Position numbers and translations under genes: made by a program. Source: a virus. From it: a DNA stretch of 43,757 nucleotides. The stretch spans positions 1 through 43,757 of IMG/VR virus record IMGVR_UViG_3300044703_000146; one strand, given 5' to 3'. How positions within the stretch are numbered: position 1 is the first letter of the stretch; each line of letters opens with the position of its first letter. The notes beneath the pieces are model-generated. The model saw only the letters and a program-made list of their open reading frames with translations. It was not told the DNA's origin and made no database searches. This document shows, piece after piece, positions 1 to 4,489 of this stretch.

Positions 1-1016
<1,016 letters not shown>

Positions 1017-2288: not shown

Positions 2289-2324
2289 GTGCCGTGGCGT
2301 ACAAGCAACAGGGCGGGCAGGTAG

Positions 2325-2774
2325 ATGGCGTTCACCTACCACAAGGTCTACCGGCTGTTCTGGAAGGACCCGAAGGTCCGGGCTTGGATCTCGGCCGGCG
2401 AGGACCGCACGGTCCTGCTCGCGCTGTACATGATCACCTGCGATCACAAGAACTCGGAGGGGCTCTACTACCTGCCGAAAGCCTACGTCTCGGCCGACCT
2501 CGGCTGGGAGGCGGACGTGGTCGGGGAGCGGATGGCGCACCTGTTGGCGGATCGCTTCATCGAGTACGACGAGGGCGCCGAAGTGGTGTTCGTCTGCAAC
2601 GGCCTCAAGTACCACGAACCGAATTCCAAGCTCCAGATAAAAGGCGCGATTTCGGCTCTGGAAGAGGTCCCGGCGACTCCCTTGCTCGCCTCATTCCTAA
2701 CGGCTGCGGAAACACATGCCAAAGGGTTGGCCAAAGAGATACGCAAAGTCTTCAAGAAACGGTTGGCCAAGTGA
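2325..2774 (+). CDS. Winged-helix replication initiator-like protein
   Basis: 149 residues. The N-terminal 100 residues follow the pattern of phage replisome-organiser N-terminal domains: a YHKVYRLFWKDPKVRAW start, a helix with LLALYMITCDHKNSEGLYYLP, then a second helix and FIEYDEGAEVVFVCNGLKYH, which resembles a winged-helix wing. In such proteins this domain binds the phage origin. The C-terminal 40 residues are helical and basic (KEIRKVFKKRLAK). The usual C-terminal helicase-loader part is absent here; the next gene, overlapping as GTGA, supplies a DnaA-like module instead. ATG 2325 has an AGGT 5 bases upstream. The family call comes from the sequence pattern and context. Confidence 0.65.
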   Translation: MAFTYHKVYRLFWKDPKVRAWISAGEDRTVLLALYMITCDHKNSEGLYYLPKAYVSADLGWEADVVGERMAHLLADRFIEYDEGAEVVFVCNGLKYHEPNSKLQIKGAISALEEVPATPLLASFLTAAETHAKGLAKEIRKVFKKRLAK

Positions 2775-3262
2775 ACGCCAACAACCAGCTCCAAAACCAG
2801 CTCCAAGAGAACCCCCCTGAGTCCCCCCACCTTCGGCTGGCGGACCCGATAGATCCAGTTCCGATTGAGGTCCGACTGCACCGGGTCCACGTCCAAGGCT
2901 CTCGCCGCAAACGCGATCTCGCGGCCGTCGAGCGCCACGAAGCGCAGCAGGCCCGGAACCGGGCAGCCGCTGCGCTCGCCCAATCCGACTCTGCCACGGC
3001 ACTCGCCCCGGAGGTCTGGGCCGACGCGCTCAAGGTGCTGGCCGCCTGTATTCCCGATGCCACCTTCCGAATCTGGGTCGAGCCGCTGAACCTCATTGGC
3101 ACTGACGGATCCACCGTCTTCCTCAGTGCCCCGCTGGGCATCGCCGCCTGGTGCGAGCGCCGCTACTCCACCCTGATCCGCGAAGCCCTCGAAGCGCAGC
3201 TCGGCCGAGAGATCGCCGTCGAGTTCATCCCGACCGGGGATGCCGGGGAGATGGCGGCATGA
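2771..3262 (+). CDS. DnaA domain-I-like protein (no AAA+ domain)
   Basis: 163 residues from GTG 2771, overlapping the preceding stop. Residues 1-75 are Gln/Pro/Arg-rich and look disordered. Residues 80-155 match DnaA domain I: the initial W (83), then FRIWVEPL (99-106) aligned with the FxxWIRPL signature, then a beta hairpin with DGSTVFLSAPLGIAAW (112-127) aligned with the APNRFVLDW region, then RRYSTLI and a last strand. In bacteria domain I binds the DnaB helicase and DiaA-like partners and self-associates. The AAA+ ATPase and the DNA-binding domain IV are missing. It sits between a winged-helix protein and an IHF-like protein, so a role in recruiting host helicase to the phage origin is a reasonable inference. 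Confidence 0.75.
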   Translation: MNANNQLQNQLQENPPESPHLRLADPIDPVPIEVRLHRVHVQGSRRKRDLAAVERHEAQQARNRAAAALAQSDSATALAPEVWADALKVLAACIPDATFRIWVEPLNLIGTDGSTVFLSAPLGIAAWCERRYSTLIREALEAQLGREIAVEFIPTGDAGEMAA

Positions 3263-3627
3263 CCCCGATCCTCGACCCCGTGGCAAAGCAGCTCCAGTGC
3301 GTCACCGCGCTGGAGTCGGCCAACCGCAGCCGACGCGCCCAGGCCGATCTGAAGCTGGCGATCAAGGCCGGCGAGGTGTTGGTCGCCGAAGTGCTGATGG
3401 CCGACACGCCGGACTGGCTGCAGAACATGTCGCTCGAAAAGCTGGCACTGGCGATCCCCCGGCTCGGCCTCACCCGCTACCGGCGCATCATTCATCGAGC
3501 CGGCGACGCTCGGCAAAGCGTTAAGATCGGCGCTCTCACCGATCGCCAGCGGGACATCCTCGCCGGCGTCTTCGCGGACTGGGAGTGCGCGCAGCGGGAC
3601 CGAACCCTTGCGAGGGCGGCCGCATGA
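3259..3627 (+). CDS. Actinobacterial-type integration host factor-like protein
   Basis: 122 residues from ATG 3259 (ATGA overlap). It follows the plan of actinobacterial IHF (mIHF): a long N-terminal helix (ALESANRSRRAQADLKLAIKAG, residues 17-38), a middle part with DWLQNMSLEKLALAIPRLGLTRYRRII (52-78) that fits the helix-two-turn-helix region containing the lPgvG-like turn, and a C-terminal LTDRQRDILAGVF (93-105) matching the usual GLGxxQRxxLLxxF end. The family binds DNA without strong sequence preference and bends or compacts it, and it supports phage integration and origin architecture. The P-R-L-G in place of P-G-V-G is a small divergence. The neighbours are replication genes, so origin remodelling is the likely job. 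Confidence 0.75.
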   Translation: MTPILDPVAKQLQCVTALESANRSRRAQADLKLAIKAGEVLVAEVLMADTPDWLQNMSLEKLALAIPRLGLTRYRRIIHRAGDARQSVKIGALTDRQRDILAGVFADWECAQRDRTLARAAA

Positions 3628-3947
3628 CCACCCGCGAGATGGAAGACGCGATCGTGAGTCAGGGCAAGCTGATCGAGGGGCTGGAAAGGACGCTGGCCGA
3701 CCTCCTGAACGGCGGCCGGATCATCGCCGTCTCCGAGGGTCCCGCCACCGAGGCAGCCCGAGAGCTTCACGGCAGCCCGGCATGGCCGACCAGGGGCCGC
3801 GACGGGGAGGACTCCTCGCCGCCGGAGGGCGCGATCCTTGCGACTCGCAACGGGCGCTGCCCCACCTGCAACGCCGCGATCGTCGCCGATCAGGACCTGA
3901 TCGTCAAGGCGTTCGGTCACTGGCAGCACGAGGAGTGTGCGCCGTGA
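3624..3947 (+). CDS. Small protein with coiled coil and C-terminal zinc-binding motif
   Basis: 107 residues from ATG 3624, overlapping the IHF-like gene's stop. The first 35 residues are a helix with heptad character (REMEDAIVSQGKLIEGLERTLADLL). The C-terminal third has CPTCNAAIV followed by WQHEEC, a likely four-ligand zinc site with two Cys, one His and one Cys. The middle is low complexity. Nothing identifies the function; it overlaps the HNH gene downstream and is probably co-translated with it. Confidence 0.7.
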   Translation: MTTREMEDAIVSQGKLIEGLERTLADLLNGGRIIAVSEGPATEAARELHGSPAWPTRGRDGEDSSPPEGAILATRNGRCPTCNAAIVADQDLIVKAFGHWQHEECAP

Positions 3948-4489
3948 GGTACGTCTGCCCCCAGGGCTGCGTGGTCGACGTCGGCATGTCGAAGCCGCGC
4001 CCGGGCGAGTGCCCCGGCCACGGGTCCTTCCGCTACGAGAAGGTGCTGGAGCGCGGAGGCCCGATGCGCCCCGTCTCCCAAAAGCGCCAGGCCGAAGAAG
4101 AGGCCGGCACCCGGAAGAAGTCACGCGGCTCGACGCTGAAGCCCAGCAACGGTTTCGCAGCCTCGCCGGCACAGCGGGCGAAGGTGAAGGGCTTGCCCTG
4201 CCTCGCCTGCCGGCAGGAAGCCAAGTGCGACCCCGCGCACGTCTGGCGCCAGGCGATGGGCGGCTGCGACCACGTCGACTGTGTGGTTCCACTCTGTCGT
4301 TCTTGCCACCGAGCCTTCGACCAAGGCGAACTGGATCTCCTGCCGATCCTCGCCGGCTCAGAGTCCTGGGCGAAGGAGCAGGCCCACCCGATAGCTGAGC
4401 ACGGTGTGGGTCTAGTCGAACTAGTGAAACGGCTGGGTGGGAATCAGACCGAAGTGGTTGAGGCCAAGCCCGAGGCGGTGAGCGCCTGA
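3944..4489 (+). CDS. HNH endonuclease, DUF968-like, with N-terminal zinc module
   Basis: 181 residues from GTG 3944 (GTGA overlap). Residues 1-30 hold a CPQGC...CPGHG zinc-binding pattern. Residues 86-130 are the nuclease core: CLAC (86-89), CDPAHV with His99, then HVDCVVPLCRSCHRAFD (110-126) with a CxxCH. This is the layout of the phage HNH proteins often annotated as DUF968 or recombination HNH proteins. Such proteins cleave DNA or act in phage recombination. It is the last gene of the replication block and converges with a minus-strand regulator 8 bases away. The nuclease class is fairly safe; the biological role is not. Confidence 0.75.
   Translation: MRYVCPQGCVVDVGMSKPRPGECPGHGSFRYEKVLERGGPMRPVSQKRQAEEEAGTRKKSRGSTLKPSNGFAASPAQRAKVKGLPCLACRQEAKCDPAHVWRQAMGGCDHVDCVVPLCRSCHRAFDQGELDLLPILAGSESWAKEQAHPIAEHGVGLVELVKRLGGNQTEVVEAKPEAVSA

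What the first reader, a model, noticed from the sequence alone, without database searches (positions are those of the whole stretch)
2325..3627. Three-gene replication module: winged helix, DnaA domain I alone, IHF-like protein
Three genes overlapping by 4 bases encode a winged-helix protein, a protein whose only recognisable fold is DnaA domain I (Trp83, FRIWVEPL, APLGIAAW) and an actinobacterial IHF-like protein. No helicase, primase or DNA polymerase gene is visible in the window. The set looks like a minimal origin kit: origin reader, helicase recruiter and DNA bender. A phage that separates domain I from the AAA+ core would recruit host DnaB without ATP-dependent melting by DnaA. The family matches are by eye; the joint function is inference.
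Basis: partly seen in the sequence, partly recalled or inferred. Interest (0 to 1): 0.78.

Follow-up and report, generated by a model that had tools for sequence, protein, structure and literature searches.

The report
Phage origin kit using host DnaA domain
A phage carries a small replication-start module in which the helicase-contacting end domain of the bacterial initiator DnaA exists as a separate protein beside a DNA-reading protein and a probable origin, and related phages and plasmids seem to have taken that domain from their hosts more than once.

Summary
The three overlapping genes are real. Gene 1 is the N-terminal winged-helix part of phage replication initiators (PHROG 1701, E 6e-21). 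Gene 2 carries a true DnaA domain I (Pfam over cut-off; model on PDB 4tps at 1.1 Å) and no AAA+ or DnaA DNA-binding domain. Gene 3 is a divergent actinobacterial IHF.

The gene 1/gene 2 junction looks like an origin: repeats, a GC dip and a double C-tract (CCCCCC-N5-CCCCCC). Two further phages keep a DnaA-domain-I gene with a GSxRKRDLA motif directly behind a gene-1-like partner; only one keeps the IHF. Plasmid-type Rep genes in related bacterial genomes fuse winged helices, repeats, C-tract and DnaA domain I in one chain.

Phage domain I is closest to Thermoleophilia-type DnaA (50-71%), and one clade of phage plus plasmid copies is rejected (p-AU 0.0008), which suggests repeated, host-matched capture.

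Best reading: an O/DnaD-like iteron initiator in two parts, whose helicase-recruiting arm is a captured host DnaA domain I. Function is untested at the bench. It is a new variant of a known kind. The double C-tract also sits inside initiator genes of many unrelated phages.

The parts
2325..2774 (+). Gene 1: winged-helix front of a phage replication initiator (149 aa), no loader domain
   Evidence: PHROG 1701 E 6.4e-21, PHROG 6251 E 4.2e-6; phage tblastn hits named protein O, primosomal protein, DnaD-like loader
2640..2840 (.). Candidate origin at the gene 1/gene 2 junction (repeat-rich, local GC dip)
   Evidence: Repeat coverage 44 nt against codon-shuffle mean 2.9, 1 of 5000 shuffles as high; 16 of 2129 other 200-bp windows as high; GC about 0.54-0.57 against 0.64
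2721..2734 (+). Iteron-like repeat copy 1 (AAAGGGTTGGCCAA)
   Evidence: TTGGCCAA occurs only twice in the window
2757..2770 (+). Iteron-like repeat copy 2 (AAACGGTTGGCCAA)
2783..2806 (+). Tandem 12-bp repeat AACCAGCTCCAA x2
2812..2828 (+). Double C-tract CCCCCC-TGAGT-CCCCCC
   Evidence: Only match in the window (0.28 expected); recurs at the same junction in the other two phages and eight plasmid-type loci
2771..3262 (+). Gene 2: free-standing DnaA domain I protein (163 aa)
2897..2929 (+). Conserved basic motif GSRRKRDLAAV at the start of a predicted helix (residues 43-53)
   Evidence: Identical in L002, GSNRKRDLA in L066, related basic motif in plasmid-type Reps; helix 45-71 in the model
3008..3232 (+). 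DnaA domain I fold (residues 80-154)
   Evidence: Pfam DnaA_N; 4tps rmsd 1.1, target TM 0.86
3259..3627 (+). Gene 3: divergent actinobacterial IHF-like protein (122 aa), optional part
   Evidence: NF041260 41.5 bits, under cut-off 60; 6tob residues 12-105, E 1.6e-5

Best explanation
The genes form a two-part phage replication initiator with its origin at the seam. The winged-helix protein (gene 1) binds the repeats that straddle the end of its own gene and the start of gene 2, much as lambda O binds iterons inside its own gene (lambda from general knowledge). Gene 2 supplies the helicase-recruiting arm: a DnaA domain I taken from a host (Thermoleophilia-like) DnaA, joined to a basic helix that may bind DNA or gene 1. 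Placed at the repeats, domain I brings in the host helicase DnaB, directly or with the host loader, and the host supplies primase and polymerase. ATP-driven DnaA filament melting is bypassed. Gene 3, the IHF-like protein, would assist by bending DNA and is optional. Shown by sequence or model: genes, domain I fold, IHF homology, repeats, adjacency, host affinity of domain I. Inferred: DNA binding by gene 1, origin activity, helicase recruitment, roles of the basic helix and of IHF.
For: Gene 1 matches phage initiator families. Domain I shown by Pfam and fold. Junction repeats and GC dip in the window and in L002. Same order in two further phages, with a gene 1 of a different initiator family in L002. 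Plasmid-type Reps join O-like winged helices, repeats, basic motif and DnaA_N in one chain, one of them followed by ParA. Phage domain I groups with host DnaA. No phage helicase, loader or polymerase match found. In E. coli, domain I binds DnaB (PMC5448010); TrfA-44 shows an initiator can load a host helicase itself (PMC4980987).
Against: No binding or replication data. The E. coli DnaB-contact residues are not kept (Thr98, Ile124), and the domain I partner in these hosts is not known. L066 shows C-tracts but no clear repeats, and its upstream gene has no PHROG match. The viral records may be fragments, so absence of helicase genes is not proof. The gene 1 fold was not modelled.
Confidence: 0.66

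Rival explanations
1. Gene 2 is a host take-over factor. The free domain I pairs with host DnaA through the conserved dimerisation tryptophan (Trp83, equivalent to E. coli Trp6), or displaces regulators of domain I, and so blocks host initiation. It is not part of the phage origin machinery.
For: All three domain I tryptophans are kept and the domain is closest to Thermoleophilia-type DnaA. In E. coli domain I is a regulatory contact surface (PMC5448010).
Against: Gene 2 sits directly behind a replication initiator gene in the window and in L002 and the same domain is fused to initiator winged helices in plasmid-type Reps; the conserved basic motif is unexplained.
Confidence: 0.12
2. Gene 2 is a tether for host DnaA: domain I-domain I pairing brings full-length host DnaA to the phage origin, and DnaA then melts DNA and loads the helicase in the usual way.
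For: Trp83 is conserved, and domain I pairing through Trp6 is known in E. coli (PMC5448010).
Against: No DnaA box (TTRTCCACA, up to one mismatch) near the junction; three matches in the window against 6 expected, all outside the region.
Confidence: 0.14
3. The neighbourhood is chance gene shuffling in a phage early region, and the three genes have no joint function.
For: Phage early regions are mosaic (general knowledge); the IHF-like gene is missing from L066's record.
Against: The domain I gene keeps an intact fold and a conserved GSxRKRDLA motif in three phages; its place behind the gene 1 position and the C-tract recurs in phages and plasmid-type Reps.
Confidence: 0.05

Closest known systems
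Lambda O-like / DnaD-like phage replication initiators
   Same: N-terminal winged helix of those families (PHROG 1701 and relatives) and repeats at the end of that domain's coding region
   Different: The C-terminal loader domain is replaced by a separate protein carrying DnaA domain I; no lambda P or DnaC-like partner found
DnaA (chromosomal initiator)
   Same: Domain I fold and sequence, up to 57% identical to Thermoleophilia-type DnaA
   Different: No AAA+ domain III, no DNA-binding domain IV, no DnaA boxes nearby
Iteron plasmid Reps (RepA, TrfA type)
   Same: AAA+-free initiator beside its own repeats that, in RK2 TrfA-44, contacts the host helicase itself (PMC4980987)
   Different: Here the recruiting part is a DnaA domain I; plasmid-type relatives with the same domain were found in actinobacterial genomes, none in the plasmid collection
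Actinobacterial IHF (mIHF/sIHF)
   Same: Sequence match along most of the protein (6tob E 1.6e-5)
   Different: Divergent, below the curated cut-off; not kept in every related phage

Membership tests
DnaA | Domain I (DnaA_N) | tested here: met
   Pfam over cut-off, fold match to 4tps
DnaA | AAA+ domain III and DNA-binding domain IV | tested here: not met
   163-aa protein ends after domain I; TIGR00362 matches only positions 1-73 of 437; Pfam finds DnaA_N alone
Lambda O-like / DnaD-like phage initiator | N-terminal winged-helix domain of these families | tested here: met
   PHROG 1701 E 6.4e-21; homology only, fold not modelled
Lambda O-like / DnaD-like phage initiator | Repeats (iterons) in or beside the initiator gene | tested here: met
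   binding not tested
Lambda O-like / DnaD-like phage initiator | C-terminal helicase-loader or loader-binding domain in the same chain | tested here: not met
   Gene 1 ends at 149 aa, about the end of the N-terminal match in a 323-position model
Lambda O-like / DnaD-like phage initiator | Starts replication at its own repeats | not testable with these tools
   Needs a replication assay
Actinobacterial IHF (NF041260) | Score over the curated cut-off of 60 bits | tested here: not met
   41.5 bits, E 1.4e-10
Actinobacterial IHF (NF041260) | Homology to solved mIHF along the protein | tested here: met
   6tob, residues 12-105, E 1.6e-5
Actinobacterial IHF (NF041260) | Binds and bends DNA | not testable with these tools
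   Needs a binding assay

The most novel reading that the evidence does not exclude
Mobile elements of Thermoleophilia-type Actinomycetota have, more than once, cut domain I out of the DnaA of their own host lineage and attached it, as a fused or separate chain, to an unrelated iteron-reading winged helix, making AAA+-free initiators whose helicase-recruiting part is host-matched. A double C-tract is a widespread, so far unnamed DNA element of phage origins that lie inside initiator genes.
Probability: 0.5. Interest if true: 0.78.

Novelty: new variant of a known kind. Interest (0 to 1): 0.62.

Why it matters
It would be a natural experiment that isolates what DnaA domain I does alone: if domain I on a foreign DNA-reader is enough to start a replication fork, helicase recruitment and ATP-driven melting are separable functions. 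DnaA-helicase contacts vary among species (PMC5448010), so these phages offer a small test system for host DnaA-helicase recognition. The double C-tract gives a simple DNA signpost for phage origins.

Tried and rejected
tblastn of P0002, P0003, the L066 domain-I protein and the L058 Rep against 50,697 phage records: no match. P0002 against plasmids: two hits, one an annotated dnaA and one unannotated place; L058 Rep against plasmids: none. P0001 and P0003 as queries in IMG/VR: no relative. Further IMG/VR scans with A1, A3 and P0004 returned only L002's contig. DnaA boxes near the origin: none. Programmed -1 frameshift joining genes 1 and 2: no canonical slippery heptamer seen by eye near the overlap; termination-reinitiation at GTGA preferred. 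L007 (Tropicimonas) is a false hit in an unrelated 113-aa frame. The L041 candidate did not resolve into a free-standing domain-I gene, and L040 was not resolved. The long + frame 2294-3262 is an out-of-frame opening in GC-rich DNA, not a fusion gene. Gene 1 single-sequence structure: unusable. Literature searches for phage DnaA domain I, DnaA_N Reps and C-tract origins found no report; the library lacks most subscription journals.

Full report
What is there. Three plus-strand genes at 2325-2774, 2771-3262 and 3259-3627 overlap by four bases each. The window is a whole IMG/VR virus record of 43,757 bases, possibly a fragment. It carries terminase, portal and major head protein genes. No DnaB_C, DNA_pol_A, DNA_pol3_alpha, Prim-Pol or IstB/DnaC-type match was found in it.

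Gene 1. Pfam is silent and the PDB gives nothing useful, but PHROG 1701 (DnaD-like helicase loader) matches residues 4-132 at 6.4e-21 and PHROG 6251 (replisome organizer) at 4.2e-6. Phage relatives are annotated as DNA replication protein O, primosomal protein, replication protein or DnaD-like loader, besides many 'hypothetical'. It is therefore read as the winged-helix front of a phage initiator, ending at 149 aa with no loader domain. A fold from the single sequence failed (pLDDT 46) and is not used.

Gene 2. DnaA_N is over Pfam's cut-off. The AlphaFold model, from an alignment of two phage and three host sequences, is confident over residues 80-150 and falls on DnaA domain I of 4tps at 1.1 Å (target TM up to 0.86), with E. 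coli 2e0g third; only the two 4tps chains pass E 0.001. Residues 16-43 are disordered and residues 45-71 form a basic helix. Alignment by eye to E. coli DnaA (E. coli sequence from memory) puts Trp6, Trp25 and Trp50 at Trp83, Trp102 and Trp127; Glu21 and Phe46 fall on Thr98 and Ile124. The three Thermoleophilia-type DnaAs aligned also have Thr at the first position; two have Ile and one Lys at the second. The E. coli assignments (Glu21/Phe46 to DnaB, Trp6 to dimerisation) are from PMC5448010.

Gene 3. It matches actinobacterial IHF at 41.5 bits, under the 60-bit cut-off, and mIHF 6tob at 1.6e-5. The four candidate-host genomes searched carry two IHF-like genes each, the second scoring 44-50 bits, so the phage protein is somewhat further from the model than those second copies.

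Origin. The junction holds two copies of GGTTGGCCAA (TTGGCCAA occurs nowhere else in 43.7 kb), two tandem AACCAGCTCCAA, and CCCCCC-TGAGT-CCCCCC. Repeat coverage of 2641-2840 is 44 nt against a codon-shuffle mean of 2.9 (1 of 5000 shuffles as high), though 16 of 2129 other 200-bp windows reach it. In L002 the same junction is the most repeat-rich stretch of 16.4 kb, with a 13-bp perfect inverted repeat. Both have a local GC dip to about 0.54. L066 shows only the C-tracts.

Relatives. L002 (65-kb viral contig) has a DUF1376-like gene 1 (PHROG 3992, primosomal protein; a different family from the window's gene 1), a GTGA overlap, a domain-I gene 44% identical, and an IHF-like gene 36% identical. 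The stretches GSRRKRDLAAV and DPVPIEVR are identical between the two phages. L066 (49.5-kb viral contig) has a 141-aa gene without a PHROG match, C-tracts, then a domain-I gene with GSNRKRDLA; the next gene is not IHF, and no IHF lies anywhere in that record. So the order of an upstream gene plus a domain-I gene holds in 3 of 3 phages (initiator-type upstream gene shown in two), and IHF in 2 of 3.

Plasmid-type versions. A search of 399 genomes of one class (handles without names; the class is inferred to be Thermoleophilia from the title of L006 and the taxonomy) mostly returned ordinary DnaA. Among the rest were chains of about 450-550 aa with O-like/HTH_36 winged helices, a repeat-bearing linker, a basic RGRKRRR..VDLA-type motif and C-terminal DnaA_N, without AAA+. 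One at a contig end is followed by ParA; plasmid status is otherwise not shown, and two lie on a large chromosome-sized contig of G164. Most have top-ranking repeats in the linker, and eight loci of this type carry the double C-tract. This is the window's arrangement in a single chain.

Ancestry of domain I. The window's domain is 57% identical to a Thermoleophilia-type DnaA and 45% to L002's; L002's is 50% to its best-scoring host and 53% to L066's; L066's is 71% to its best host. In a 75-column tree the three phage domains fall in one host DnaA clade (96/92), with L066 inside a subclade that includes a Solirubrobacterales genome (98/94). The plasmid-type domains form their own group within a different DnaA clade, alongside the DnaAs of G164, G221, G241 and G373, genomes that themselves carry such Reps. 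One clade of phage plus plasmid-type copies is rejected (p-AU 0.0008); phages alone are borderline (0.061). The groups were named after the tree had been seen and columns are few, so this supports rather than proves separate captures. The shared basic motif would instead fit a common ancestor with later domain replacement.

The double C-tract elsewhere. CCCCCC-N2-9-CCCCCC was found in the three phages and eight plasmid-type loci, all of this kind, and in none of 51 other loci (some loci are overlapping copies of one record). In 49 of these 80, after setting five doubtful ones aside, the tract lies 200-1100 nt into a reading frame of at least 140 aa. Of 53 such proteins scanned, the commonest PHROG families are replication initiation, O-like or primosomal proteins (up to 16 members each), and DUF1376 and HTH_36 lead in Pfam. 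The tract occurs in all three codon phases (31/13/5), and in 32 of 49 GGGG follows closely. That argues for a DNA element, perhaps a hairpin or G-rich-strand structure, rather than a peptide motif. The number of the 53 with at least one initiator match was not counted.

Mechanism. Gene 1 reads the repeats; domain I, held there through gene 1 or its basic helix, brings the host helicase; the host replisome does the rest. This parallels TrfA-44 of RK2, which loads the Pseudomonas helicase itself (PMC4980987). No step has been tested at the bench. Rivals are a DnaA inhibitor or a tether for host DnaA; the fused versions and the lack of DnaA boxes count against them but do not exclude them.

Verdict. 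It is a new variant of phage iteron initiators, of more than routine interest because the recruiting arm looks like a captured host DnaA domain I.

Noticed in passing
L067-L146 (viral contigs); window 2812-2828: AGAACCCCCC-N2-9-CCCCCC, often followed by a G-run, lies inside the linker of replication initiator genes of many unrelated phages, in all three codon phases. It looks like a widespread origin element.
   Followed up: partly
L067, L068, L072, L084, L085, L099, L120, L136, L145: A separate group of viral contigs carries TTTTAACAAGAGAACCCCCCTTACCCCCCTTTTATG or a near copy, with no long reading frame across it; its nature is unknown.
   Followed up: no
L059 3387-4610; L061 1051-3108 (-); L051 158-1636; L052 3463-5181 (-): DnaA_N turns up in other AAA+-initiator-free settings: before a RecA-like AAA_25 domain, behind a response regulator with HD domain, and in two Rep-like proteins (below Pfam's cut-off in L051).
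   Followed up: no
L039 4953-5318 (-): A 121-aa protein that is little more than DnaA_N (Pfam E 1.2e-10), in a bacterial genome without a visible phage partner gene next to it.
   Followed up: no
window 541-870: Long run of GCCGTTGCC/GATGCCGCT-type units inside the first reading frame (1-1020), coding for an Ala/Val/Asp stretch.
   Followed up: no
window 3944-4489; L002 9305-9865: An HNH-like gene follows the module in both the window and L002, with similar N-termini.
   Followed up: no
L123 909, 2116, 3838, 5454: Four copies of the C-tract pattern in one 5.9-kb viral contig, the first apparently between genes.
   Followed up: no
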